A stretch of DNA of 64,000 bases from Panaeolus papilionaceus (taxonomy: Eukaryota > Basidiomycota > Agaricomycetes > Agaricales), in contig JADNRZ010000018.1 in NCBI GenBank assembly GCA_015501605.1, positions 992,001-1,056,000 of the forward strand, written 5' to 3'. Shown one piece after another: positions 21,669-56,936 of the stretch. Position 1 is the first letter of the stretch; every line of letters begins with the position of its first letter. The position numbers were made by a program, and so were the translations under genes. The notes under the pieces are model-generated. The model did no database searches. It was not told where the DNA came from and saw only the letters and a program-made list of their open reading frames with translations.

Positions 21669-22367
21669 AAACAAGTACTCCAGATCATGAAAGAAAAAGA
21701 CCTCTACCTAAAACCCGAAAAATGCAAGTTCAACAAGACCAAGATCACCTATCTAGGATTCATCATCGAACACAACAAGATTTCCATGGATCCTGCCAAG
21801 ATCTCATGGATCAAGGATTGGCTGACACCGAAGACCCTCAAACCAGTCCAATCATTCCTAGGCTTTGGAAACTTCTACTGAAAATTCATTCGACACTATG
21901 CCAACCTCGCCTGGCCTCTGAACGACCTACTCCGAAAAGACTGACCCTTCCTATGGACCGACACCCACCAACGCACATTTGACAACCTCAAAGACCAATT
22001 CAGCAAAGAACCAGTTCTTGCCATGCCAGATCAGAACTGACCATTTGAAATCGAAGCTGATGCATCCCAGTACACCTACGGAGCTGTCCTAACCCAGACT
22101 GACAGCAATGGAAAACGTCACCTGGTCTGTTTTCTCTCACATTCATTCTCACCTGCTGAACAGAACTATCAAATCTTCGATTGAGAACTCCTAGGAGTTA
22201 TCCAAGCTCTCAAAGAATGGAAACACTACATCCTGGGATCCCCTCACATGACCACTGTCTACTCCGATCACAAGAATCTCACATATTGGCGTTCACCCCA
22301 GAACCTTAATCGACAACAAGCATGATGGTTCCTTATCCTTTCCAAATACAATATCAAACTCAAACAC
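21669..22367 (+). pseudogene. Gypsy copy 1: RT C-terminus and RNase H with five TGA codons
   Basis: The frame is continuous with the integrase gene downstream. It carries YLKPEKCKFNKTKITYLGF, SFLGFGNFY and the RNase H segments FEIEADASQYTYGAVLTQ and [10 protein letters not shown]. Five in-frame TGA codons interrupt it, at 21879 and at about 21942, 22038, 22182 and 22323. At 21879 copy 2 reads CGA, so this stop arose by CG to TG. The others are consistent with CGA to TGA or TGG to TGA. No frameshifts are needed, so the decay is purely by transitions. Confidence 0.88.
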
Positions 22368-23957
22368 ATGCCGGGTCACAAGATGATTCAGTCAGATGCC
22401 CTCTCACGACAACCAGACCTTATGCCAGAAGGAGATAACGAAGAAAACACCGACATCACTATGCTCCCCAAATCCCTACTTATAAATCTCATTGACACTG
22501 AGCTCCAGAAACAGATAGCCAACGCCAAACCACTAGACAAGAATGCCATGGAAGCCCTGGAAACCCTGCTCAAAAATACAAACATAACCACTGGAACAAC
22601 AATCAATGATTGGTCCTTTGAAGAAGGAGAACATGGGAAATTGCTCTTTTACAAGAATAAGACCTACATTCCCAACGACACAGAGCTCTGCAAGTCAATC
22701 ATCATGCACTTCCACAATCCCATATCTGCTAGACACCCTGGACAGATAGAAACATATAATGCTGTGGCCCGATCATATTGGTGGCCAGGCATGAGACACT
22801 TCATTTCCTCCTACGTCAAAGGATGCGCCACCTGTCAACAATTGAAGATCGATAGGAACCCTGCCAGACCCACCTTAATGCTGATTCCTGCTCCTGAATC
22901 ACTGAAACCCTTTGCCCAAACCTCAATGGACCTTATCACCGACCTTCCACCATCCCTCAGATATGACTCTATCCTGTCTGTGGTGGACCACGGCCTTACG
23001 AAGGGGGTAATTCTTATCCCTTGCTCCAAAACGATCTCTGCCGAAGGCGTCACTAAACTTTTACTCGACAACTTGTACAAACGATTTGGACTCCCAGACT
23101 CCATCACCTCAGATCGTGACCCCAGATTCGCTGCTCACGCCTTCAAAGAACTCCTCAGACTCCTCAACATCGAATCCAAACTCTCTACTGCCTATCATCC
23201 CCAAACCGATGGAACCACTGAACGCTTTAACCAGGAAATTGAAGTTTACCTCTCCATATACTGTATCACAAATCCTGATTCTTGGCCTGACGCTCTCCCC
23301 ACTCTTGAATTCACTCACAATAATCGACGACACTCTGACAGACTTCACTCTCCTTTTGAACTCATGCTAGGTATCAACCCCACATCTATTCCATTAGCTT
23401 TCAAGCACACCATCTACCCTTCAGTCAATAAGAAACTTGCTTCTCTCCTCAAGATCCAACAAGAAGCGATTGCCGCTCACACATTCGCTAGGAATAGAAT
23501 GATCAACACCAGCAAGAACCCCTTCACCCTGTTCAAAATCAGAGATCTTGTATGGCTCAATTTCCGAAACCTGAAACTTGGTAATGACAAGAAGATTTCA
23601 ACGAAGCGAGAAGGACCCTTTCCAATTACCAAAGTACTGGGACCAGTAATGTACCACCTCAAGCTCCCTCAGTACTGGAAAATCCATGATGTCTTCCATG
23701 CCACCCTTCTCTCCGAATACTCCAAAACAATAGAACATGGACCAAACTTCCCACAGCCACCACTGGACATCATCGGAGGAGAAGAAGAATACGAACTTGA
23801 CCGAATTCACAAGCATTGTGGAAAACTGGGCAACAGAGAATACTTCGTATCGTGGAAAGGTTTCCCACTGTTCCACAACTCATGGGAACCAGAAACCAAT
23901 CTCACCAATGCCCCTGAAATCCTCAAACCCTATAAGAAGCAGCACAAACTTGCTTGA
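22368..23957 (+). CDS. Gypsy integrase-chromodomain polyprotein segment, open
   Basis: An uninterrupted 529-codon segment of pol. Residues 1-20 are the RNase H end (MPGHKMIQSDALSRQ). The zinc-binding H2C2 motif uses His116, His123, Cys153 and Cys156 (KGCATC). The integrase core has Asp188 (SMDLITDLP), Asp249 (TSDRDPRF) and Glu285 (DGTTERFNQ), a complete DD35E triad. The C-terminal domain follows with DLVWLNFRNLKLG and REGPFPITKVLGP. A chromodomain at about 472-521 contains EYFVSWKGFP and HNSWEPETNL. In the living element this would be released from Gag-Pol and insert the cDNA; here the upstream pol has stops and there is no 5' LTR, so autonomous activity is excluded. A long open frame in a dead copy suggests recent inactivation. 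Confidence 0.93.
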   Translation: MPGHKMIQSDALSRQPDLMPEGDNEENTDITMLPKSLLINLIDTELQKQIANAKPLDKNAMEALETLLKNTNITTGTTINDWSFEEGEHGKLLFYKNKTYIPNDTELCKSIIMHFHNPISARHPGQIETYNAVARSYWWPGMRHFISSYVKGCATCQQLKIDRNPARPTLMLIPAPESLKPFAQTSMDLITDLPPSLRYDSILSVVDHGLTKGVILIPCSKTISAEGVTKLLLDNLYKRFGLPDSITSDRDPRFAAHAFKELLRLLNIESKLSTAYHPQTDGTTERFNQEIEVYLSIYCITNPDSWPDALPTLEFTHNNRRHSDRLHSPFELMLGINPTSIPLAFKHTIYPSVNKKLASLLKIQQEAIAAHTFARNRMINTSKNPFTLFKIRDLVWLNFRNLKLGNDKKISTKREGPFPITKVLGPVMYHLKLPQYWKIHDVFHATLLSEYSKTIEHGPNFPQPPLDIIGGEEEYELDRIHKHCGKLGNREYFVSWKGFPLFHNSWEPETNLTNAPEILKPYKKQHKLA

Positions 23958-24134
23958 ACTCCCCAACAAACGCTTTCCCTTCTCAAATACAAATTGCTAC
24001 CCAACTTCTACAACAGGACCTCCTCCATCCTCAAATCCACCCCCATCCTCTTCATCTTCTTCTGCTGCAAAAACTGTCTGCATCCAGTCTGCATCCTCCT
24101 CCTCGTCCTCCTACATCTCCTCTGTGCACATAGG

Positions 24135-43260: not shown

Positions 43261-43853
43261 ATACACTCAACTTATAGATAAAGAATACATTGACCTTTTT
43301 TACTTAGTATTGTGCTGAGATGCAAATTTGAGCGAAATATGATGTATTTCATATATATGACCATAAACGGCAATTATGTCTCAATAAGTAAATTGCATTG
43401 CTATCATCATTCAGATAAGTGCAGCATAATGTGGATAAGCTTCAATAATATACAGGCCCACTTATTCATACTTATTATATGTTATCCTGCATTATAATCA
43501 ATTCCGGTTTTTCCTGATGTTACTCCCTGGGATCCCCTCACACAACCACCATCTACTCCAATCACAAAAATCTCACATATTGGTGTTCACCTCAGAACCT
43601 TAATTGAAGACAAGCTTGATGGTTCCCTATCCTTTCCAAATACAACATCAAACTTGAACACATGCCAGGTCACAAGATGATCCAATCAGACACCCTCTCA
43701 CGACGACCAGACCTTATGCCAGAAGGAGAAAATGAAGAAAACACCGACATCATGATGCTTCCTGAATCCCTATTCATTAATTAACCTCATTGACACCAAA
43801 CTCCAGAAACAGATAGCTGATGCAAAACCCCTAGACAAGAATGCCATGGAAGC

Positions 43854-43936
43854 ACTAGTTATTGACAAGCTCCAATCATTTATTTCTGGCAATGCCCCAG
43901 CTAATCAATCCATTTTGCCATGGACAAAATATCATT
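43854..43936 (+). repeat. left terminal inverted repeat of the KDZ transposon
   Basis: Begins ACTAGTTATTGACAAGC and continues CCAATCATTTA, GGCAATGCCCCAGCTAATC and CCATTTTGCCATGG. The right end read inward gives AGTGGTTATTGATAAG, CAATCATTTA, GGCAATGCCTCAGGTAATC and CCATTTTGCCATGG. The match runs for about 82 bp with a few mismatches and one short gap. Confidence 0.9.
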
Positions 43937-44017
43937 AAAGGCCAGTATAAAGACACACAAATCATTGACTCAGGCACAATCATTCAATTTAGATGCACAA
44001 CATCATTCATTTCAAGG

Positions 44018-44470
44018 TGCGAAATCATTCCGAAATCATTCTTTTTCGAGCCACGAAATCATACAGATCTGTGGTGCGAAATCATTCACTTTTGAGGCGC
44101 GAAATCATGCATTTTTGGTGTGCGAAATCATACAGATCTGAGCTCCGAAATCATACACTTCTGAGCTGCGAAATCATACAGATCTGTAGTGCGACATCAT
44201 TCACTTTTGAGGTGCGAAATCATTCACTTCTGAGCTGTGAAATCATTCAGCTACAAGCCACGAAATCATACAGATCTGTGGCGCGACATCATTCAGTTTT
44301 GAGGTGTGAAATCATTCCCTTTTGAGGCGTGAAATCATGCATTTTCGAGGTGCGAAATCATTCACTTCTGAGCCGCGAAATCATACATTTTCGAGGTGTG
44401 AAATCATACAGATCCGAGCTGCGAAATCATACATTTTCGACTTGGAGGTGCGAAATCATTCACTTTTGAG
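44018..44470 (+). repeat. left subterminal array: about 20 copies of CGAAATCAT
   Basis: The word (C/T)GAAATCAT is repeated about 20 times with a spacing near 23-24 bp. It is followed by alternating TCACTTTTGAG and ACAGATCTG words. The variants GTGAAATCAT and GCGACATCAT are single transitions or substitutions. Because the period is close to a multiple of three, open frames with CEIIQ/RNHS repeats cross it; these are not considered genes. It lies about 80 bp inside the left terminal repeat. Confidence 0.88.
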
Positions 44471-45530
44471 CCACGAAAGGGTTTTGCAACAGGTGGGGAG
44501 ATGTCTATCCCAACCCGTACCCTGACACACCCCTACCTGCAAACCCGGCAGGTTCTGTCACGGGTTCGAAAACCATGTCCATCACTAGTTATGAACGCAC
44601 CAAATCATTCATTTACGAGGTGCAAAACCATTCAAATATTAAGCGTACAATGACTGATTTTTGACTGGAAATCATTCATTTTCATGGCACAATGTCCATG
44701 AACAAAATTATAATTGTCTGGCATAGAGGGGGATATCACATTTAAAATCCCAAATGTTGGCTCACCTGTTCAGTTGATGACTTGTTGATGACGCTGATGC
44801 GCAGCGAGACGGTGTGGGAACATTGCTTGGCAGTGCGCGCGAACACAAGCTGTGAAATTGCCATACTAAGCATTTTGTGTTGATGTGGCAGTGAAGTCGT
44901 GCCCTCCTTCTTCCCTCCATTGTCACTAGCCCTGCCTGCGTTCTCCTAGGTCAGCAATTTACTATTTTGTGAGTCTTTCGTTCGTTCATGTGTTTTCACA
45001 GTCGACCAGTGGCATGTGTGCTCCATGTAGCACTGTGTTAAGGGCATGGTCAGTTGTTTGCCCACCCATGTTCTCCTAGGTAAGCAATTTACAATTTGTT
45101 GTGTCTCTCATTCATTCGTGTGTTTCATAGTTGACCGGTGTCATGTGTGGTGTGGTCACCAGTAACTTGGAGTGACACTCAGGACACTGCAGCCTTGTTC
45201 TAACTTTATCAAGAGGTTCGAAGATGATCAATCAGTGGTAAAAGCTGGAGTGTCTGTGTGTTCTTGGTCATTCAATGGTGAGTTAACAGTGTGTATTATC
45301 TTGAAAACCAACTGACTTGCTTGTGTGGATAGCCAACTTGCCACCGAATGTGAACCCTCTCACATCTCTCCCCAAAGACCTAACCCGCTAGTGTGCATCA
45401 TTTCTCCTTCCACCACTCACCCCGGTTCCACATACTACCACTTACCTGCGCCTGACTTGTTACTTAATATTGCTATGTCAACAATAAATATTATCCATTG
45501 CCTGTCCTCGAAAAGTGATGCGCCCTTGTG
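44471..45530. other. spacer between the left array and the KDZ gene, with an 85-bp direct repeat
   Basis: No gene is supported. Segments at about 44938-45020 and 45064-45150 are direct repeats (GTTCTCCTAGGTCAGCAATTT against GTTCTCCTAGGTAAGCAATTT, then CGTTCATGTGTTTT-like words, GACCAGTGGCATGTGTG against GACCGGTGTCATGTGTG). CpG is relatively frequent here compared with the flanking Gypsy DNA. Confidence 0.55.
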
Positions 45531-48500
45531 CTAAGTTCTAATCATCGTCTGAATCAATATTGGAGGAACACGACCATCAAAATCATCAGGACTATCCGAC
45601 TCTGAACTGCTCCCCTCTGTCACTCCCTCTGAACTCAACTCAGCTTCTGATGGTGGCGATGCCTCTGTTACTGGACAGGATGTTTTCACAGACCCTGTAG
45701 GTGGCATATTCGGACCCAAAGAGTGGTGTGGCTTTGATGGTGGCGACGTGAACGGTATGTAGTTCATACACCACCCATTTCCAAACCCAAGTTCATGGAG
45801 AAGCAGGGCCCAGTACACTGCACAGGCTCCTGCCAAACGTCGTGCATAGTCGGCCTGCTTCAAGGCATATGCTTGCAGTCCTGATTGAAGATGTGAACCT
45901 ACCTCTGTCCGCAACCCAACACATCGTTCCCACCACCTCACCCTCCACTCTAGATAGGCAATACACCGCCGCATCTCCTCTACAATCAACTTCAACTCTT
46001 CCTCCCAGCGCAACGCTCGTGTGCGAGCCTTTGCCCACTGCACCTGAGCGGTGACATCTAACTTGGCTTCATCGTCAAGCTTTTTCGTGTTCGGGCCAAT
46101 TACGAGCCAAATCCAGGGGATAAGGTGATGTGTTTTCAACTTCTTCTTCCGATTTTCCTTTTCTGTATCATTCAACCCTTCCAAGGGATCCTCTTTACCA
46201 AGTGGTCTCATATCCTCGTCCTTCAACTCCAAGAGCCGAACAGACCAGTCTCCTTTTGGATCCAAAATTAGCAGGGCATCTCTTGCAGATCGATATCGCG
46301 CTGCCGCGTTATGTTTCTTCTTGGTCAAGCGATCGTACAGTGTGTGGGCACGGGTATTAGCTTTGTTCCCCTCCCCTGCAAGATTTAGTTTTTTGAAGGT
46401 TGAGAGATTGGTTTCTGCACGGAGTAAACACTGAATCTCCTCAAGCACGACTTCAGCCTGAGTGACCCATGCACGGGTTCAATGCTCCCAAGCCGGTTCA
46501 CAGTGAGGTGTAAGGTGTCAGGGAGAGATGAAGGGAGGAAAAGCTTGGTGCATTCGGGAGCAGGGGGTTCAGAAGCATTCTCCACCTCAACAAGAGGAGT
46601 TACACACGGCATGTAGCTCTTCTGAACATCACACCAACCATTCAGCCTCTGTAAGAGTGCTGTTCGTTTCTGCTGAAGATCAGCAGAATCCTGTGTTGTT
46701 GGCTTTGAGCTCTCCAACAATTCATCTTTTAACAGTCGTCTATCCAATTGTAGAAGTGACCTTGAATAAAATGTGTATTCAGGTAATAAATGCGACATAC
46801 TGCTGATCCTCAATCTCGAGGCCTGTTAAGAGAAAACTTGACATCGAAATCTTGTGAGCCGGAACCTCCCCTGCACGAGCCGCCGTTTCTTCTTCAGCTG
46901 CAAGCTGCAACTGAACATCCTGAAGAGTCAACCCTGGGTTTGTGTGAGTGTGATCAGAAATATGACAGCTGAAACAGATCAAAGGAGATGGCTCAACTCA
47001 CCTGGCTCCTTCTCTTCGTATGGGTTGGGTTGGGTTTGATCTTGCTCCCACGCCAGGGTCATTTCCTCCCATTGTGCGACTGCTTCGTCATTGAAGGTCG
47101 CCGAGAACTTCTCAAAGTTCTCTTTATGAAGCTGACTTAACCTGTCTGCTTCCTTCAGCTTTCGAGCAAAGCGAAAACCTAGAATATATGATAACTAGTT
47201 AGCAGTCACCAATAGCCGCACTAAGCAAAGAACTCACGAAATCCAACGATCTTGCAAATGTTGAAGTAGTTCCAGTGATCGTTAATGACCTCATGACGGG
47301 CGGGGGAGGACATTTCCCAGACACTGACTCCCAAGCCATTTGTTGTCCACCACATTTGCTCAATCTCATCTCCACATAGCCTCCCAACTTCAGGCATGTA
47401 ACCGACATTATATCGTTCCTGACAGCTTTTCCCATGGCCATTGATGTGCCAAGAAGGAACAGCTACTTGAACGTCAACATGATCAGGAATATGAAGCCGT
47501 GTTGGTAAATCCTGCATTCTGGTTTGAAGACAGTGTGACCACTGACACGCAATATCGTATGTGATAACAACGTGCTGAAGGTTAATCCCTGAGAGTGAAG
47601 AGAATAAAATGTAATCCATATTGCAATATCTGAAAATTGTGAATTTTGTTACCTCTGAGTAAACACGAAGCTATTCATCACTTTGCATAAACCACTTACT
47701 TTTCACCCTTCTGTAGATCACCAGCACCATTACGACAAATGAGACAGTGACGTGAACAAATAACAAGACCAACACCCGATACTGAATAACCAGGGGTGCT
47801 GCGAGTGGCCGCACGCAAGATTGCGTCATGTTCTGAATTACAGGTGTTAATCTATGAATCCGGATGAACAATCTAAATTAGTATTTGAATTATTAGATCG
47901 TTGAAAGCTAACCTCCGGCTCATCAACCTTTGCTGCTATGTGCTTCATGTATGGCTCTTGCTCAACAAAGGCACCCCATCCTGACCCAAGTTCAATATCA
48001 TTGAGACCGCGATCCTTTTGTTTGAGTTTGAAATTCACATCAATTGCAACGAACAATGTGTAAAGAAATCTATCAGATTATGTCATGAGTCATGATGTCA
48101 AGATATGATAATAAGTGCAAGTACGCATGCATCTGCTGTGTCTGCATCCCAATCACTGGGCAGGTTCTTTTCAGGATGTGGACATAGTGGGCATTCCACC
48201 AATGTCCCCCCTAGCTCAGTTCCCGATGTGCCAGATGGTGAGTGTGCACAGCCAGACCTCTTTAGTCCCATCATGTGCCTCCAAATCCGTATTGTGCAAT
48301 TAAAGTTATTAAGCTGTGACTATATGTAGGCATCAGATTTATTTTAGATCTGCTATTGAGTGTTGTGACCGTACCGGCTGCTCTGCCAACTCGAGGAAAT
48401 CAGTCTTCTGTAGAATGTGGTTGTAGTAGTCATAACTGGTGATTTTCCCATCCAAATTAAGGGAGTGGAATGTATCAAGGATGTCAAACGTGAACACACT

Positions 48501-49483
48501 GCGAATCCGCCGTAGTGAGGCTGGAAATAAGCGCTCACGCAAAAGCTGTCGGTATCTGGGAGCCATGTTTGGGCGACACCCACAGTAACGAACAGAAAGC
48601 TTGAAAACACCGGTTGTATGAATGACTTGCAAAGTCTGAATATCTCCATCCAACAGTTTCTCGGCGCGATTAGGACAATCGCTCCCTTCATGTCCTAGTT
48701 GGCGTACAAGACCAAGCTCATACAGCAATGACTTGACAAAAAAGGTCCCATTCCATTTCTAGAAAGTGTTTAATGACAAAACACAAATGAGATATCAGAC
48801 GCACAGGTGTGGCGTAGCAGTCTACATACCTCAATACAGTGGAAAGGAAGGTGTTTGTGCTGGTGAAGGGAACATGATTGACAGAGGACCTGGCTAGTAT
48901 TGAAGCAGTCCAAACATCGGACCACTGACTGACCCTCTGTTGTTGGAGATGTTGGAAGACCACAGTTACTACATGCCGGATCGCGACAGCCATCTGGAAT
49001 GCCCTCATGTTGGAGGATAATATCAAGAAACTCATCGCGCACGTGCAGCCAATCTGCAAGTTTGTCCTAGTGTTCTTTACTATTTGGATTTTGGAATAAC
49101 ATATTTACATATGTACGCACTGTATTACTGGACCATGTTCGACTCCGTTTCTTCAGTGGCTCCTCTCCAGATAATGATCTTGACTCCTGATCATTGGATG
49201 TTGGGACTGCAGTCTGAGAATCATCTTGTCCACCTGTATCTGCTTCATGGTTGTTGGCAGTATCGAGAGATGTGGATGTCTCGCCATTGTGCTGAGATGC
49301 AGGTGTCAACGTAACTTCACTGTGTCTTGCACCCTTCACTGATGATCGGCCCCTGGTTTTCTTCCCCATTGTCACCACTTCGGTCTTCCCGTGATTTCTT
49401 TCAGTAGTGGCAGATGGACTTGCATTGCGAAAGGTGACATTCCTTGTTCGTGCTTTTGTTTTGGAGCCAGCAGTGCACTTCAT
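45531..49483 (-). CDS. KDZ (Kyakuja-Dileera-Zisupton) transposase with Cys-rich CxC-type domain
   Basis: Minus-strand gene with about nine exons, starting at the ATG at 49483. The first 130 residues are basic and Ser/Thr-rich. A Cys/His zinc-binding region follows at 49042-48770 (GCRDPACSNCGLP, RCLDCFNTSQVLCQSC) and continues at 48728-48339 with LYELGLVRQLGHEGSDC, FKLSVRYCGC, LLRERLFPASL and FDILDTFHSLNLDGKITSYD. This is the CxC2-like module known to accompany KDZ transposases. The nuclease-type core holds FVAIDVNFKLKQKDRG (48050), GVGLVICSRHCLIC (47740), VVITYDIACQWSHCLQTR (47580) and GRLCGDEIEQMWW (47370). The Asp of IDVNF, the Asp of YDIACQW and the Glu of DEIEQMW are the likely catalytic acids. 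The C-terminal part (46979-45531) contains KARTRALRWEEELKLIVEEM and YLEWRVRWWE. Exons are open and splice sites plausible, so the gene may be functional. The last codons can be read in two frames. Confidence 0.88.
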
Positions 49484-49671
49484 GATAAGAACTTGAAAAG
49501 GACAAGGGGTGAAATGATAACGATTAGAACTATATTTGGAAACTCAGGGTTCGGAACACAACTTGCTAGATTGTCGGATCTCCAATTACTGTTTGGAATA
49601 TAGTATTATCATTGACGTGAATTATAGACTTGGATTTGAAATGAACTAAGAAAAACAAACAAAAAATCTAA

Positions 49672-50520
49672 TTATTGACCACTACACTTAGCACTAAGAT
49701 GAGCATTATAGGTCTGCATATTCGAATAAGGGACATACAACATTCTCGGACCATACTTGTGTTTGTCACCCCGAACACGGCCCGTAAACTCAACTGTGCC
49801 ATGTGTCAATCCCTTCAGAAAGGTGTCAAGTGCCTCTGCATAGGTAGTGTATGACTTCCACTGACTTTCGTCAAGAGGGAGGCCACTGATCAAGAAACGT
49901 GCCCAGTCTCTAGGTAATGTAGATTGGTTAATAAAAATAAATGTTCAGCCAGGATAAACGCACAAGTCGCTGTAGATGCCAGGGCATCGGCCTTTGATCA
50001 CTGTATAGAAGGTGCAAGAACTGGGATTAAACTCAGGTTGGGTGCTAGCCACTTCAGGTTCTTCATCGTCATCGTTATCAGGAGGGGGTGTAACACCATT
50101 AGAAGCCAATTCGAAGACCAACGCTTGAATGGAGCGGAGCATGTCCATTGTTTCTTCGTGCTGGGCTTGAAGAGTCGCGTTTTGAGCATTCAAGGCGCGC
50201 GTGAGGCTGTGGAGAGCGGCAACTTCATCTCGGAGTGCTTGCAGCTCCATAGCGAGTGTGTCATGTCGCACAGAAGGCTGAGGGCTTGGGATGGAGTCTC
50301 TGCTATCAAAAACCAAGGTATGATTCTCAACTGGAGAGAGTGTCAGACATGCACTAAACAATGGGAATGAAAGTAACCCACAATTCCTAAAGTGGACAAC
50401 AGGTTTTTTGGATTTAGATGGGCTAGCGAGTTCTTGAGAACCTGTTCCGCTTGCGAGGGCGCCTGGCAAATGTTCATGTTGAGAAGAAGTAAAACCAGAC
50501 GGATTTTGACTGGCCTTCAT
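49672..50520 (-). CDS. coiled-coil protein with RNase H1 N-terminal/viroplasmin-like motif
   Basis: The start is the ATG at 50520 (KASQNPSGFTSSQHEH). An intron probably removes about 50380-50330 (GTGGGTTACTTTC .. TCTCTCCAG). A leucine/alanine-rich coiled coil follows (LQALRDEVAALHSLTRALNA and LQAQHEETMDMLRSIQALVF), then an acidic linker (PPPDNDDDEEPEVAS). The motif FYTVIKGRCPGIYSDL matches the opening of the RNase H1 N-terminal (hybrid-binding, also called viroplasmin) fold. After a second intron near 49960-49920 the domain continues with WKSYTTYAEALDTFLKGLTH. In known proteins this fold binds RNA-DNA hybrids or double-stranded RNA. No RNase H catalytic domain is attached. The gene follows the transposase's orientation and lies about 190 bp upstream of it. 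I infer that it belongs to the transposon. Confidence 0.65.
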
Positions 50521-50863
50521 GCTGAAGGGCAATATTCAGAGCGCTGTAGGAGGAGAGAGGTAAAGGGGTGTAAAATAAAATTTTACTCTACTTGAAAGGA
50601 ACTATTTGCTCTACAAACACACAACGCCTGGCTGTCAGACACCGCAACCCGACGCTAAAATTCCAAATGAAGAATTCATCAGTCGACTCGACTCGACAAA
50701 TAAATAAATAAAAAATCATTTTCCATACCAAAATACTCAATCAAACTGAAAGTGAGGGGGAGAGGGACAATTCAACCTTCCTACCCCAACCACTTGCTGT
50801 TCACCTCCATCCCATCCACCCCACCTACAACCTCTCCACTCTGTGAACTCTTCTCATTTCAGC
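50521..50863. promoter_or_regulatory. divergent promoter region between two KDZ cargo genes
   Basis: A 343-bp region separates the ATG codons at 50520 (minus) and 50864 (plus), so it must contain start sites for both genes. It holds ATAAATAAATAAATAAAAAA at about 50697, which could act as a TATA-like element, and a pyrimidine-rich tract (50780-50840) just before the plus-strand start. The sequence TCGACTCGACTCGAC at about 50680 is a short repeat. Confidence 0.5.
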
Positions 50864-53800
50864 ATGACTAGAGCGCCCTGGACTACCAAAGAGCAACGTA
50901 CCTTTCTAAAACAGCACCTCATAAAGTGGAAGGTCACAGATTCAAAGAAACGTATCGTGTTATTTCACACCCTTGTCAACGAGTGGATTGAACGGTGGCC
51001 AGCAGGCTATACCCCACCTTCAGAGGCCGACATCGAAAGCTATGTTGATGCCAATACACCGCGTAGTCTGGCAGAAGCAATGGCCAAGGAGGTTGCCCTC
51101 ACTCCCATAGCTAAGGCTGAACTTCTCAGTCCCCCTGGAGTACCATAGGGAGTCCCTAGGGACTCTCCGGACTCCCTATGGACTTTTTACATATATTACC
51201 TAAATTTGATGTTTTGATAGGTTTCAGACAAATCCATATACGGAGTCCCTAGGGAGTCCCTACAGACTCTGTAGGGAGTCCCTAGGGAGTCCCTACAGAC
51301 TCTGTAGGGACTCCCTAGGAACTCTGGTGGACTCCATCAGGACTCCACAGGAACTCCAGGAAAATTGGATAATGCAAATGCAGATGACTCTGATGTAGAT
51401 AATAATTAGTCATTACAATATATGGACAAATGTACTCACAGTATTTCCCATAATCACCTTGTATTACTGCTGGAGTCCCAGGGAGTCCCTAGGGAGTCTG
51501 CACAGAGTCTGTAGGGACTCCCTAGGGACTCTGTATATGGATTTGTCTGAAACCTATCAAAACATCAAATTTAGGTAATATATGTAAAAAGTCCATAGGG
51601 AGTCCGGAGAGTCCCTAGGGACTCCCTTGGGACTTCTGTCACTCTAGCACATATATTACAAATTTCTCGTAATACAAGGTAATTTTGCCTTGTTTTTTTG
51701 TTTGTTTGCACTGTCCTTGTATGCTGGTGTTGCAGTTGAGGGTGTCCACAGTTGTGTTAGGTGACAATGCTGTGTTTTTTGGCAGAGAGTCCCTAGGGAG
51801 TCCGTACAGTACTCAGGGGGGACTGACAAGTACTCAGCTAAGGTATGACATTTGTCAACGTCTGTATGCGCTGTCATTCCATGTTTGACTTACATTTTAT
51901 ATTCAGAGGCTCTGTCAATGGCTCAATAATTACACCAATTGACTGACAGACTCCGACCTGGAAGAAAATGCTGATTCAAAATCATCCAAGAAGACCAAAC
52001 GAGCGAAGGGTTCCAACAAACAAACCAACAGAGCTTCCACCGCACCTCAGGTGGAACTGACTCTTGGCCCTAAATGTCCTCTTCAGGTGTGGCAGGTATT
52101 CTGGAACAAGCATAGAGACACACTCCAGCCTCTTGATAATACAGCATGGAAGGAAGAACACAAGGGAAAGGACCCTAAGAAAACACGGGAGAATGGATGG
52201 CTCGCCTTCCTCCAGCGTTGGGTGATCAATAAATACAAAACCCTCGACGACAATGCGAAGGCTTGCATAGAAGCGGCTTGCAAGTTAACCACTGGATACG
52301 AAGTCTTGGACGAAACCATCCAGGAACGCAACCAGCGTTATGAGAGGTAATTCTTCCTGTCGTACTTTAGTCTTCCCATGGCTAATTGTGGTTCAACTAG
52401 CTGCATAGCCCAGCTCCCTACAACTCTCGACGATATTTGTGCTTCCATCTACAGGCAAACTGAATGGTCAGGATTGATAATTTTCGGTGGTCCTCGACTG
52501 ATCCTGGGTGGAAAACGTCAGATTGTAGTGTAAGTGAACCTTTATTGACCCTCACGCCAGCAACTTGTTCTGACATCTCCCTTATTAGGTCGTTTGGAGG
52601 CAAAAGACAGAACCTGGAGGAATGGATGGGGAAAGAGAAGTTTGCAAACACTATTCATCAAGTCGTTTCGGATTATTTGTTGGACATGTACGGGGGTGAG
52701 TACTCTTGATTTGACATTTGTCCTGGATCGTGCTGATGAGGTCCTCTAGACGGTGAAGCACTCGAGAAGTGGTCCCTTGATTATGAGCCACCCAGTTGTT
52801 CAGAGTCTGAATCTGAAGATATTGAGAGTAATGATGACAGTCATGGCAATGAGGGCACGTCGGTCACCGAGGAAGGTGCCCATGTAGCATTGGGCGAAAA
52901 AGAGAGGTTTGTTTTTTCGGATCTTATCTATTAGGGAACTCTGTCTCACGATATTTCGTTGCAGTCCACATGACATGTTGGGCTCGTCTGCTCTTCCATC
53001 ATGCCCTGTCACCGCTCTTGAAATAATCAAGAATGTGTTAGAAACGACCTCACACACTACGACCACCTCCACAACCATCTCCACCATTGATTCTATGGAA
53101 TCTGTTGCAGATCATAACAACAATGATGCTCAAGGTTAGTACCTCCATAGAACTTGAATACATTAGAAAGCATTAACCAACTCTATTTTAGAGCACGATG
53201 CACATGCGTTGCCCCATCCAACAACCAACTTGCAAGGACAATGTGAGGAGGATGCTTCTGTTGAAGAGAGCAACAACAAGGGAATAAGTGGTAAGTTGAA
53301 TGTTACTTGGTTCCATAAAACGACTAACACCTTGCTCTATCGATGATTTAGGTGAGATGCCACCTGGAGATGGGGCGATTATCGATACATCCAATGTCAC
53401 TGGACTTCCTCAGCTGCCTCTCGAGGATCTGGACAAAGCTGTTACCGACTCAATCAATGTAGATGCTCCAGATCAGCCAGAAGAGCGTCCTGGCTCGCAA
53501 CAAACACGAGAGCAGATGGGCAAAGATTCTGATGCAGATAACAGTGAGATCAAGTTTACACTACTCATGCTATATAGTCACTGACGATCTACTAGACATT
53601 ACCATGGCCCAGGACGAGACTCTGCCTCTACAAGATCAAGGCAGAGCAAGTGCTATCGACACATCACTTACCCTATCAAAACCTGCCACGTCATCACCCA
53701 ACATACCCTTTAAGGCCAGTCCAACTCAACATAACGTCTCCAACAACTCCACCATATTGTCTATTTCTACGCCTTGCATTACTCCAGCTATTCCAGCTTT

Positions 53801-54551
53801 GCCATCCTCATCTCTGTCCACAAATACACCATCAGCTACTCCTGCATCGCCATCCTTATCTGTGTCCAACCACGCACCATTGGCAGATCCCATCACCACC
53901 ACAGCACCAGTCGGAACACAGGCAGCTTGGGATCTTGTGCGGAATGCATCACAAGATCCACGATGGCACTCCTTTGTCAACGCATTTGTTGACTTTGAGT
54001 CTCAGGATCCTATCACAGGAGTAAGTCCAATGCGTCATTTGACTTGTGGGTCGTCATGCTAACCAAATGTCTAGCAACTCTCTGTGGGCCTTGCAAAGCG
54101 CCCAAAAATTGTTACGGAGTGGATCAGATCCAAGAAGAAGCATGTCATACCTGAGATTTCCTTCAACTCAGCTGTGACTCAAATGATAACGTGGTGGAAA
54201 GCCTTGTGTCCTGATCCCGACGATGCAACCACATTTCCATCCTTCACTAAAGGGGGTACCTCTGGTATTTATACCGTTGTTGTCCCATTAGCCTGGTGTA
54301 TATCCCTCATCAATGCCAGTGCGGACAACACACTTGAGGAGGAACTGTGGCAAACTGTCGGAATACTTGGGCGCATCTTGGCATTCTTTGCTGCTGAGAG
54401 CAAGAAACCTCAGCATGCCTCTAAACGTTCCGTCGCATCAGTTGATGTGACCTCCAATGAGAATGGTGGCCGAAAGCAGTGTGTCATTTGAATTGGACAT
54501 CTTTGATTTTAAAATTACTGACTAACAGTCTACAGGTTAAGGAAGCGTTAA
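50864..54551 (+). CDS. cargo protein of a basidiomycete-expanded family, multi-exon
   Basis: The ATG at 50864 opens with TRAPWTTKEQRTFLKQHLIK and FHTLVNEWIERWPAGYTPP, the N-terminal signature of a large agaricomycete family of unknown function. The next exon (about 51949-52350) is basic (KSSKKTKRAKGSNKQTNRAS) and then reads LQVWQVFWNKHRDTLQPLDN and GWLAFLQRWVINKYKTLDDN. Several small exons follow at 52456-53580, with donors such as GTGAGT at 52696 and 53136. A Ser/Thr/Pro-rich stretch runs 53600-53950. The C-terminal domain (54075-54480) has GLAKRPKIVTEWIRSKKKHV, MITWWKALCPDPDD and GIYTVVVPLAWCISL. The likely last exon ends GGRKQLRKR at 54551. The 51143-51630 palindromic element lies in the first probable intron (donor GTACCATAGG at 51142). 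The gene ends about 150 bp before the right subterminal array. Function is unknown; its place inside the element suggests a role in transposition or regulation. Confidence 0.62.
51143..51630. repeat. foldback element built of GGGAGTCCCTAGGGACTC words
   Basis: The left arm (51143-51262) and right arm (51508-51630) are reverse complements. The matching core runs from AGTCCCTAGGGACTCTCCGG through TTTTTACATATATTACC and AAATTTGATGTTTTGATAGG to GACAAATCCATATAC. The arms and the loop next to them are packed with the self-complementary word GAGTCCCTAGGGACTC and variants (TCCCTACAGACTCTGTAGGGA). A single extra word occurs at 51786-51810. The element lies in the first probable intron of the plus-strand cargo gene. 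Confidence 0.88.
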
Positions 54552-54659
54552 ACGAGGTCAACACTGTACCTTCCTTCATGCTGCTTCTCCATCACATGTG
54601 TTACACCCCTCCCAATGCTGTTGTTCATCTGTGTGTCCAACCCATTTCGCTTGTGCCGT

Positions 54660-55345
54660 TTTCCACCCGGTTTTTATCATTTCGCCCTCGCTCGTCATCC
54701 TTTTCATGATTTCACTCTCGCTTTTTGCCTGCATTTCTCTTGCTCTTTTTATTTGTCTTTCCCAATGATTTCGTCCTTCCATTCTAGCTTATGATTTCGT
54801 CACACCTGTCCCATAATTTTAATCACCCGTTTAGTTTTGACTTTATTGTCTTTTTCAATGATTTCGCTGTGCCTATTCCATGATTTCGCCGCACTTATTT
54901 TATGATTTCGGTACCGTTTAGTTTTGATTACATTGTGTCTTAATTATTGATTTTGTCATCATTCATTCTCTGTCACTTCCACATTCCAATGATTTCGTAG
55001 CACCTATTTTATGATTTTGTCGTTACACTCTCTGTCCCTTGCAATGATTTTGCCCAATATAGATATGATTTAATTATTGTTGATGTGTGAATGACTTCGT
55101 GCCAGAATGATTTGATTTCACTCCAGAATGATTTATATTCTATGATTTTGCTCCATACAGTTAATGATTTGGGCCAATGATTTGGCTGCTTGAGACTTAT
55201 GATTTGCACAAATGATTTGATTTGCTAGGCATTGATTATGATTGCATGCACCTACTATACATATTGGTTATGATTTTTGACCCATGGCAAAATGGAATGA
55301 TTACCTGAGGCATTGCCATGTTAAATGATTGCTCTTATCAATAAC
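54660..55345 (-). repeat. right subterminal array of ATGATTTCG words
   Basis: ATGATTTCG, the reverse complement of the left-array word, recurs at about 54704, 54764, 54787, 54859, 54880, 54902 and 54991. Further inward to outward come many decayed forms (ATGATTTTG, ATGATTTGG, ATGACTTCG) up to about 55335. Spacing is looser and CG is more often lost than in the left array. Opposite orientation at the two ends is what transposase-binding subterminal repeats would show. Confidence 0.82.
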
Positions 55346-55350
55346 CACTC
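55270..55350 (-). repeat. right terminal inverted repeat of the KDZ transposon
   Basis: Read inward from 55350 it gives GAGTGGTTATTGATAAG, CAATCATTTA, TGGCAATGCCTCAGGTAATC and CCATTTTGCCATGG, aligning with 43854-43936. The Gypsy sequence resumes with the duplicated ATGGAAGC at 55351. Confidence 0.9.
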
Positions 55351-56936
55351 ATGGAAGCCTTGGAGACCCTACTCAAGAATACTAATGTAACTACCAGAAC
55401 CACCATCAACAACTGGTCCTTGAAGAAGGAGAACATGGGAGACTGCTCTTTTATAAGAACAAGACCTACATTCCCAATGATACAGAGCTCTGCAAGTCAA
55501 TTGTCATGCACTTCCATGATCCTGTCTCAGCTTGGCATCCCAGAAAGATAGAAATGTACAATGCCATTGCCAGATCTTATTGGTGGCCAGGCATGAGATG
55601 TTTCATCTCCTCTTATGTCAAAGGATGTGCTACCTGTCAACAATTCAAGATCAATAGAAACCCTGCTAGACCTACTCTACTACTGATTCCTGCTCCTGAG
55701 TCACTAAAACCCTTTGCCCAAACCTCAATGGACCATATCACCAACCTTCCACCATCCCTTGGATTTGACTCTATTCTGTCTGTGGTGGACCATGGCCTTA
55801 TGAAGGGGGTAATTCTTATCCCTGCTCCAAAACAATCTCCACCAAAGGCATCGCCAAGCTTTTACTTGACAACCTCTACAAACAATTCAGACTCCAGACT
55901 CCATCACCTCAGATCATGACCCCAGATTCACTGTCCATGCCTTCAAAGCACTCCTCAGGCTCCTCAACATTGAATCCAAACTCTCCACTGCTTATCATCC
56001 CCAAACTGATGGGACCACTGAATGCTTTAACCAAGAAATCAAAGTTTACCTCTCCATCTACTGCATCACAAACCCTGAATCTTGGCCAGATGCTCTTCCC
56101 ACCCTTGAGTTCACTCACAATAACAGATGACACTCTGACAGACCCCACTCTCCTTTTGAACTCCTGTTAGGCACCAGTCCCACACAAATTCCACTAGCCT
56201 TCAAACACACCATTTATCCTTCAGTCAACAAGAAACTCACTTCCCTCCTCAAAATCCAACAAGAAGCAATCACTGCTTACACATTTTCCAGGAATAGAAT
56301 GATCAACCTCAGCAAAAACCTGTTTACCCCATTCAAAGTTGGAGATCTTGTGTGGCTTGATTCCCAAAACCTGAAACTTGGACACAACAAAAAGATCTCA
56401 ATGAAACAAGAAGGACCCTTTCCAATTACCAAAGTACTGGGACTGGTAACATATTGCCTCAAACTCCCACAGTATTGGAAAATTCACAATGTCTTCCATG
56501 CCACTCTTCTCTCTGAATACTCTGAGACAATGAAACATGGACCAAACTTCCCACAACCACCACCAGACATCATCGGTGGAGAAGAAGAATATGAACTTGA
56601 CGGGATCCACAAGCACTGTGGAAAGCCAGGCAATAGAGAATACTTTGTGTTGTGGAAAGGCTTCTCACCATTCCACAACTCATGGGAACCAGAATCCAAT
56701 CTCACTAATGCCCTGACATCCTCAAACCCTATAAAAAGCGACACAGGCTCACCTAGAACCCCCAACAAATGCCTCTCCAATGCAAACCACCATCCAACTT
56801 CTACAACACAACCTCCTCCATCCTCAAATCCATTCCATCCTCTTCATCATCTTCTGCTGCTGAAACTGTCTGAATTCACTCCCTGTCTTCTACATTGCAT
56901 GACTGCAAGACAAGTTTACTGTTGTTGATAATTTGT
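55351..56936 (+). pseudogene. Gypsy copy 3 integrase and chromodomain, CpG-depleted
   Basis: Homologous to 22550-23957 of copy 1. H2C2 is recognisable (SSYVKGCATCQQFKINRNP), as is SMDHITNLPPS, in which the first catalytic Asp region persists. Frameshifts occur near 55430, 55500, 55850 and 55900. The TSDRDPRF motif is decayed to SDHDPRF, and TTERFNQ has become TTECFNQ, losing the Arg codon CGC to TGC. The chromodomain (about 56575-56730) keeps EYFVLWKGFSPFHNSWEPES. The stop at about 56127 replaces CGA by TGA. The copy is dead; most differences from copy 1 are CG to TG or CA. Confidence 0.9.

What the first reader, a model, noticed from the sequence alone, without database searches (positions are those of the whole stretch)
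43854..55350. Complete KDZ transposon with three spliced genes, caught in a Gypsy element
Both ends can be fixed to the base because the Gypsy coding sequence continues on each side. An 8-bp duplication (ATGGAAGC) flanks the insert and the ends are ~82-bp inverted repeats. The element carries a CxC-KDZ transposase, a coiled-coil protein with an RNase H1 N-terminal-like motif, and a divergent gene of a large unexplained agaricomycete family. Termini and target site of such elements are rarely clear, and this one gives a natural definition of what the family mobilises. The 8-bp duplication agrees with Zisupton; the cargo assignment is inference.
Basis: partly seen in the sequence, partly recalled or inferred. 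Interest (0 to 1): 0.88.

Follow-up and report, generated by a model that had tools for sequence, protein, structure and literature searches.

The report
Mushroom KDZ transposon with three genes
An 11.5-kb mushroom DNA transposon sits in an old retrotransposon with its exact insertion site readable, and other copies indicate that it moves three genes together, one of which belongs to a larger gene family that usually sits beside transposases of this kind.

Summary
The insert is real. It is an 11,497-bp KDZ-class DNA transposon of Panaeolus papilionaceus at window 43853-55349, one base left of the stated ends. The target duplication is CATGGAAG (8 bp). A sister Gypsy copy at 22232-24089 keeps the empty site with exactly those 8 bp once. 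Of 7 genomic copies with both ends found, 4 have perfect 8-bp duplications, one 7/8, one 6/8, one none. At E <= 0.001 the RNase H1-N gene and the divergent gene were found at the same four loci only, beside a KDZ transposase in the same order and orientation, three times between both ends. So the cargo inference is supported. The window copy is decayed: a frameshift in the transposase tail, and a nested 719-bp insert plus an in-frame stop in gene 3. Gene 3 belongs to a family of at least 31 loci here; 23 lie within 10 kb of a KDZ locus, and 24 of the 28 within 20 kb are head-to-head with the nearest one. A second KDZ element on C5 with unrelated ends carries the same pair. Gene 3 thus looks like a conserved second KDZ gene; its function is inferred only.

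The parts
43845..43852 (.). left target-site duplication CATGGAAG
   Evidence: empty site 22547-22554
55350..55357 (.). right target-site duplication CATGGAAG
43853..43935 (+). left terminal inverted repeat, begins CACTAGTTATTGACAAGC
   Evidence: 81% to the right end over 78 columns; 8 exact copies of the first 18 bases in the genome, this one included
55270..55349 (-). right terminal inverted repeat, begins (inward) AGTGGTTATTGATAAG
43978..44700 (+). left subterminal array of the GAAATCAT unit (23-bp period)
54754..55240 (-). right subterminal array, mirror orientation
45531..49483 (-). gene 1, CxC2-KDZ transposase, multi-exon; candidate catalytic residues present (AIDVN 48033-48047, YDIACQW 47539-47559, GDEIEQ 47356-47373)
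   Evidence: the catalytic role of these residues is recalled, not tested
46385..46478 (-). gene 1 last exon splits here into two overlapping frames; one frame in the other three copies (frameshift in the window copy)
49672..50520 (-). gene 2, region with weak coiled-coil-type hits plus Cauli_VI (RNase H1 N-terminal) domain, open in this copy; deposited as BJ165DRAFT_1531803
50864..54491 (+). gene 3, divergent gene on the strand opposite to genes 1 and 2; broken in this copy
51117..51835 (.). nested 719-bp insert absent from the C43 copy, flanked by AGCTAAGG (51109-51116 and 51836-51843), at the apparent gene 3 exon 1 splice donor
   Evidence: the donor position is read from the sequence, no RNA data
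51940..51942 (+). in-frame TGA in gene 3 exon 2
   Evidence: models of the C10:28782, C65 and C43 copies are open here
43526..43852 (+). interrupted Gypsy copy, left part
55358..56925 (+). interrupted Gypsy copy, right part (Integrase_H2C2, SH3_Tf2-1, Chromo)
22232..24089 (+). sister Gypsy copy with the empty target site (22547-22554)

Best explanation
An 11.5-kb KDZ-class cut-and-paste DNA transposon that inserted into a Gypsy retrotransposon and duplicated 8 bp of target. Shown: ends, target duplication, empty sister site, inverted subterminal repeat arrays, the three-gene content and its conservation in four diverged copies. Inferred: the CxC2-KDZ transposase binds the subterminal GAAATCAT arrays, pairs the ends and cuts with its catalytic core; gene 3, transcribed divergently, is a second element-encoded protein used by KDZ elements (a transposition cofactor or a protein that keeps the element from being silenced), because it accompanies KDZ genes in a fixed head-to-head layout across diverged families; gene 2, with an RNase H1-type nucleic-acid-binding domain, fills a slot that holds other ORFs in other KDZ elements. 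The window copy has lesions in genes 1 and 3 and would probably have to be moved in trans.
For: 8-bp duplication with empty sister site. Of 7 copies with both ends found, target duplications are 8/8 in 4, 7/8 in 1, 6/8 in 1 and absent in 1. Genes 2 and 3 at the same four loci, all with KDZ in the same order and orientation. Subterminal arrays: 18-31 copies in the left 1 kb of the 6 assembled elements with that end, and 11-24 in mirror orientation in the right 1 kb of all 7 assembled elements (C4 was not assembled). Constraint between copies: dN/dS of gene 2 is 0.28 for the closest pair; dN is 0.22-0.42 with dS at or near saturation in the other 8 pairs, poorly aligned codons left out. Gene 3 family: 23 of 31 loci within 10 kb of one of 83 KDZ loci (at most 3.4% of the genome); nearest KDZ head-to-head in 24 of 28; without the four copies of this element, 19 of 27 and 20 of 24 (subset counted from its rows). 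A second KDZ element, C5:339710-350128, with unrelated ends (18/18 terminal match, 8-bp duplication), carries the KDZ and gene-3-family pair; its KDZ protein is mostly 28-35% identical to ours.
Against: No function of gene 2 or 3 was tested and no known fold was found for gene 3. The link between gene 3 of this element and the C5-type members is indirect: through an intermediate C43 member and one short exon of C5 that matches the profile (E 7.4e-5 in a search of that element alone); pairwise BLASTP is at chance level (best E 0.026) and the direct C-terminal profile comparison is weak (E 0.024, probability 2%). Three of 31 gene-3-family loci have no KDZ locus within 20 kb, and 4 of the other 28 have a different nearest orientation. 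One two-ended short element (C67) has no target duplication. One end of the C43 three-gene copy was not found in the stretch read. Only one C5-like pair was opened, so that test is one of one. No RNA data.
Confidence: 0.87

Rival explanations
1. Genes 2 and 3 are host genes picked up once as passengers; they ride along but do nothing for the element.
For: KDZ elements in fungi are known to carry host-like TET/JBP genes (PMC12730594, passages). The gene-2 slot holds different ORFs in the C5 element and beside a second KDZ gene on C43.
Against: No close copy (E <= 0.001) of gene 2 or gene 3 was found outside the element in this genome. Both are constrained between diverged copies. The gene 3 family recurs head-to-head with diverged KDZ genes.
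Confidence: 0.2
2. Composite region: a transposase-only KDZ element lies next to other mobile genes, and the two outer ends belong together only by chance.
For: The region has nested insertions (the 719-bp insert) and a second Gypsy copy nearby.
Against: Exact 8-bp duplication plus empty sister site, and three separate locations with the same ends and the same three genes.
Confidence: 0.02
3. The association of the gene 3 family with KDZ only reflects that both sit in transposon-rich regions.
For: Only a genome-wide density control was run, not one that keeps transposon clustering; several loci lie on small contigs.
Against: Clustering does not predict strand: the nearest KDZ lies on the 5' side and opposite strand in 24 of 28 (25% expected, binomial 2e-11, near-duplicate loci and the four copies of this element included; 20 of 24 without those four), and the pair lies between the ends of a second, unrelated-ended element.
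Confidence: 0.05

Closest known systems
Zisupton / Dileera KDZ transposons (PMC12730594, passages)
   Same: KDZ transposase, 8-bp target duplications; Zisupton has TIRs; some families carry a TET/JBP gene as cargo
   Different: Cargo here is a Cauli_VI-domain gene and a gene of another family; no TET/JBP hit in the exons scanned; which KDZ branch the transposase belongs to was not tested
Cryptococcus KDZ1, KDZ2, KDZ3 (PMC12810828, passages)
   Same: about 9-11 kb elements with TIRs and KDZ + CxC transposase; 8-bp duplications for KDZ1, 4-8 bp for KDZ2/3; mobility shown experimentally
   Different: CxC1 instead of CxC2, TIRs of 139-241 bp, no accessory gene in the passages seen
Kyakuja (PMC12730594, passages)
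   Same: KDZ transposase; the TET/JBP-carrying type found in all five Agaricomycotina orders of that study
   Different: 7-bp duplications, CA..TG ends and no TIRs in the two characterised families; here 8 bp and TIRs
Marasmius oreades KDZ/Plavaka elements (PMC8290104, passages)
   Same: TIR motifs of such elements of another agaric were characterised in its supplement (not seen)
   Different: cargo genes not mentioned in the passages seen
Giant DNA transposons of Ectocarpus, KDZ included (PMC12477816, passages)
   Same: accessory genes, nested insertions, broken transposases implying movement in trans
   Different: larger (up to 30 kb for KDZ), other host

Membership tests
KDZ superfamily | KDZ transposase domain (PF18758) | tested here: met
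   109.1 bits in the window exon; 198.3 bits, nearly the full profile, in the C10:28782 copy; cut-off 26.6
KDZ superfamily | CxC-type cysteine cluster before the KDZ domain | tested here: met
   CxC2, 106.5 bits, cut-off 27
KDZ superfamily | catalytic acidic residues (positions recalled, from no call) | tested here: inconclusive
   AIDVN, YDIACQW and GDEIEQ are present in the window copy, but that these are the catalytic positions is recall; activity not tested
Zisupton/Dileera-type | 8-bp target duplication | tested here: met
Zisupton/Dileera-type | transposase falls in that branch of the KDZ tree | not tested
   no reference transposase sequences were compared
Kyakuja | 7-bp duplication, CA..TG ends, no TIRs | tested here: not met
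   8-bp duplication and about 80-bp TIRs
RNase H1 N-terminal (Cauli_VI) domain, gene 2 | over the curated score once spliced | tested here: met
   26.6 against 21 bits; under it while split by the intron (16.1 bits)
HMG-box, gene 3 middle region | sequence or fold match | tested here: inconclusive
   no Pfam HMG hit; no PDB sequence hit; fold search with a weak model (pLDDT 56) gave no match at E <= 0.001, a Sox9 HMG domain being fifth at E 7

The most novel reading that the evidence does not exclude
KDZ transposons of mushrooms are two-protein systems: besides the transposase they encode, head-to-head, a conserved second protein (the gene 3 family, at least 31 loci here, otherwise unexplained) that is part of the transposition machinery. 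A large orphan family would thereby be explained as transposon machinery and not as host genes.
Probability: 0.5. Interest if true: 0.72.

Novelty: new variant of a known kind. Interest (0 to 1): 0.6.

Why it matters
It fixes, to the base, what one mushroom KDZ element moves, and gives several copies at different divergence with matching ends. It also turns an unexplained multi-copy gene family into a testable part of the KDZ machinery, relevant to the annotation of mushroom genomes (KDZ and Plavaka together are about half of the DNA elements of Marasmius oreades; PMC8290104, passages). The GAAATCAT arrays give a concrete binding-site hypothesis.

Tried and rejected
Registers ATGGAAGC (finding) and 9-bp CATGGAAGC were rejected in favour of 8-bp CATGGAAG because C45 and C10:28782 have unambiguous 8-bp repeats in that register.

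HMG-box idea for the middle of gene 3: resemblance seen by eye only; not supported by Pfam or by a PDB sequence search. A Sox9 HMG domain ranked fifth at E 7 in the fold search, which is chance level. The structure models were too weak to use (pLDDT 56.3 and 41.5).

PDB sequence match of gene 2 to a viral capsid chain (E 0.078): taken as chance.

Cauli_VI as a general KDZ companion: not supported. The genome search with PF01693 gave 3 hits at two places (C12, C56), neither being our element, in which an intron splits the domain; the search would also miss other intron-split copies.

Gene 3 outside this genome: two protein searches (7995 and 3186 candidates scored) gave only the own-genome copy. 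Gene 2 gave four proteins: three named Panaeolus papilionaceus, and P0005 from a 3,932-base contig without a name, whose letters are those of the C65 copy (compared by eye). Sensitivity is limited, so absence elsewhere is not shown. No comparison with other mushroom genomes was possible.

The 2-mismatch hits of the AGTGG-end pattern were not used as ends, except the one that closes a pair on C65, because the backward control gave 6 and 13 against 10 and 15 observed. The far end of the C10:28782 copy was found by reading its flank. One-ended matches at C13 (two), C29, C16, C10:1070659, C14, C40 and C18 were not paired; a C12 match is probably chance.

Dropped or flawed rows: the C43 (E4) row of the gene 3 profile was in a wrong frame, so that comparison is weaker than it looks; the link of this element's gene 3 to the larger family rests mainly. 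In one search the automatic gene 1 model of the window copy bridges its frameshift with a false intron and misses an exon; it entered no count. Automatic models of the C65 copy keep likely introns. One search left out codons in poorly matching stretches. In one search the C43 copy lacks its left end (left count 1), and C31 has 1235 unread bases in its middle. Of the 134 KDZ exon hits behind the 83 loci, 6 are under the family's cut-off.

Print: eight paper searches and passages of eight papers were seen; none of these described the gene 3 family as part of KDZ elements. The founding paper (Iyer et al. 2014, PMC3918813) is not held, so this is not a claim that it is unpublished.
Full report
What is there. 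The window is contig C10:992001-1056000 of a 50.85-Mb genome. Deposited proteins on contigs of the same length name it as Panaeolus papilionaceus, an agaric mushroom. The finding's insert is real. The stretch shared by its two flanks is 9 bp, CATGGAAGC, so the flanks alone cannot say which 8 bp were duplicated. Two things settle it. A sister Gypsy copy in the same window (22232-24089; 86.5% and 83.9% identical to the two flanks) has no insert, and the two flank alignments overlap on it by exactly 8 bp, 22547-22554. Copies on C45 and C10:28782 have unambiguous 8-bp repeats (ACAAGACA, CCCCCTGC) with ends CACTAGTTATTG and AGTG(G/C)TTATTG. Read in that register the window copy has CATGGAAG on both sides and runs from 43853 to 55349, 11,497 bp.

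Ends. The terminal repeats are about 80 bp, 81% identical over 78 columns. Inside them lie arrays of a GAAATCAT-type unit, pointing inward at both ends: AAATCAT occurs 21 times forward and 0 times reverse in the left 1 kb, 0 and 18 times in the right 1 kb, and less than once per kb between; the mean of 500 single-base shuffles of the left 1 kb is 0.13. The other assembled copies show the same wherever they have the end in question. This is the layout expected of transposase binding sites; binding is inferred.

Other copies. Searches for the ends and reading of one flank gave seven copies with both ends, the window copy included: window, C10:28782-40498, C65:1226-11881 (10.7-11.7 kb, with KDZ) and C31:158169-162515, C45:25054-29702, C4:8017-12426, C67:1414057-1418548 (4.3-4.7 kb). 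Target duplications, read: 8/8 in window, C10:28782, C31, C45; 7/8 in C65; 6/8 in C4; none in C67. In the two short elements read in full (C45, C67) 1.66-1.73-kb inverted arms are 99.5-99.8% identical, and no open frame exceeds 130 codons: likely non-autonomous derivatives. The middles of C31 and C4 were not fully read.

Genes. Gene 1 is a CxC2-KDZ transposase. Gene 2 has a Cauli_VI domain (RNase H1 N-terminal type) that passes the curated score only when the intron inside it is removed. Gene 3 has no Pfam family above its cut-off. At E <= 0.001 gene 2 and gene 3 were each found at four loci: window, C10:35-37 kb, C65:7-9 kb, C43:56-58 kb (for gene 3, where weaker hits begin at E 0.004). All four have KDZ hits, KDZ and gene 2 on one strand, gene 3 on the other, in the same order. 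In the three longest aligned blocks the window and C43 copies are 76-81% identical in DNA; the window copy is 65-73% identical to the other two outside the terminal repeats. The proteins are constrained: dN/dS 0.28 for gene 2 in the closest pair; dN 0.22-0.42 with dS at or near saturation in the other 8 pairs.

State of the window copy. The last exon of gene 1 is split into two overlapping frames where three other copies have one. Gene 3 carries a 719-bp insert absent from the C43 copy, with AGCTAAGG on both sides, lying at the apparent first splice donor, and an in-frame TGA at 51940-51942. Gene 2 is open. So the copy is complete in its ends but not in its genes. The C43 copy lacks 797 bp of the KDZ region, and its CACTAG end was not found up to C43:66500.

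The gene 3 family is wider. Next to another KDZ gene on C43 a divergent member was found (C-terminal exon, E 2.5e-8 to the profile of the element copies in a search of that 21-kb stretch). Searching the genome at E <= 0.01 with that exon, and with a further member, gave 31 loci together, the four element copies among them at E 0.001 to 0.006. Against 83 KDZ loci clustered from 134 exon hits, 23 of 31 lie within 10 kb (at most 3.4% of the genome is that near) and 28 of 31 within 20 kb; in 24 of those 28 the nearest KDZ is on the 5' side and opposite strand. Without the four copies of this element the numbers are 19 of 27, 24 of 27 and 20 of 24. Some loci are near-duplicates (98-99%), so binomial probabilities (2e-11 for orientation) are too small. 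As an independent check one such pair, on C5, was opened, the only one tried. It lies in an element C5:339710-350128 (10,419 bp), found by scanning the two flanking stretches for 8-bp duplications next to inverted ends: duplication ACTCGAGT, first 18 terminal bases identical (next best 11 of 18), about 560 bp of inverted repeat at 80%. The shared stretch there is 10 bp, so the 8-bp register rests on the symmetry of the ends. Its KDZ protein is mostly 28-35% identical to ours, its ends are unrelated, the slot of gene 2 holds a 351-codon ORF that does not match the gene 2 profile, and the gene-3-family gene is head-to-head. Similarity between its gene 3 and ours is weak: one short exon matches our profile at E 7.4e-5 in a search of that element, but BLASTP is at chance level and the C-terminal profile comparison gives E 0.024; the main link goes through the C43 member.

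Reading. My further reading is that gene 3 is a standing second gene of KDZ transposons and gene 2 a variable one. What gene 3 does (cofactor at the ends, or protection from silencing) is not shown; attempts at fold recognition failed.

Known work. Zisupton and the Dileera family of Puccinia make 8-bp duplications; the two Kyakuja families described make 7 bp, have CA..TG ends and no TIRs (PMC12730594, passages). Cryptococcus KDZ1-3 have 139-241-bp TIRs and moved in culture, with 8-bp duplications for KDZ1 and 4-8 bp for KDZ2/3 (PMC12810828, passages). TIR motifs of KDZ and Plavaka elements of Marasmius oreades were described (PMC8290104, passages). KDZ elements are said to carry accessory genes frequently in fungi (PMC12477816, passages, citing Iyer et al. 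2014, which is not held). So complete KDZ elements are not new; this family, its gene set and the genome-wide pairing were not met in the passages seen.

Noticed in passing
window 22232-24089: Second Gypsy copy of the same family, 84-87% identical to the interrupted one, holding the empty target site.
   Followed up: yes
window 51117-51835: 719-bp nested insert with 148-bp inverted arms, 96% complementary (51147-51294 and 51480-51627), and AGGGAGTCCCT repeats, flanked by an 8-bp AGCTAAGG repeat; looks like a small non-autonomous element. Its genome copy number was not searched.
   Followed up: partly
L045/L046/L044 (C67:1414057-1418548) and L038/L048 (C45:25054-29702): 4.5-kb foldback elements sharing the KDZ ends, with 1.7-kb arms that are 99.5-99.8% identical, far closer than the arms of the full elements; recent origin or homogenisation unexplained.
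   Followed up: partly
L067/L074 (C43:66071-67324, minus): Open 418-codon ORF resembling a Tc1/mariner-type transposase (by eye), between two gene-3-family genes.
   Followed up: no
C33:190442, C11:902615, C10:1104858: Three gene-3-family loci without a KDZ hit within 20 kb: solitary remnants or host copies.
   Followed up: no
C10:1070659 (minus-strand end; L005, L042): A CACTAG-type end of this element family 14.7 kb beyond the window, whose partner end was not found in the stretches read.
   Followed up: partly
C12:1325571-1325745: Strongest Cauli_VI match elsewhere in the genome, perhaps the host RNase H1.
   Followed up: no
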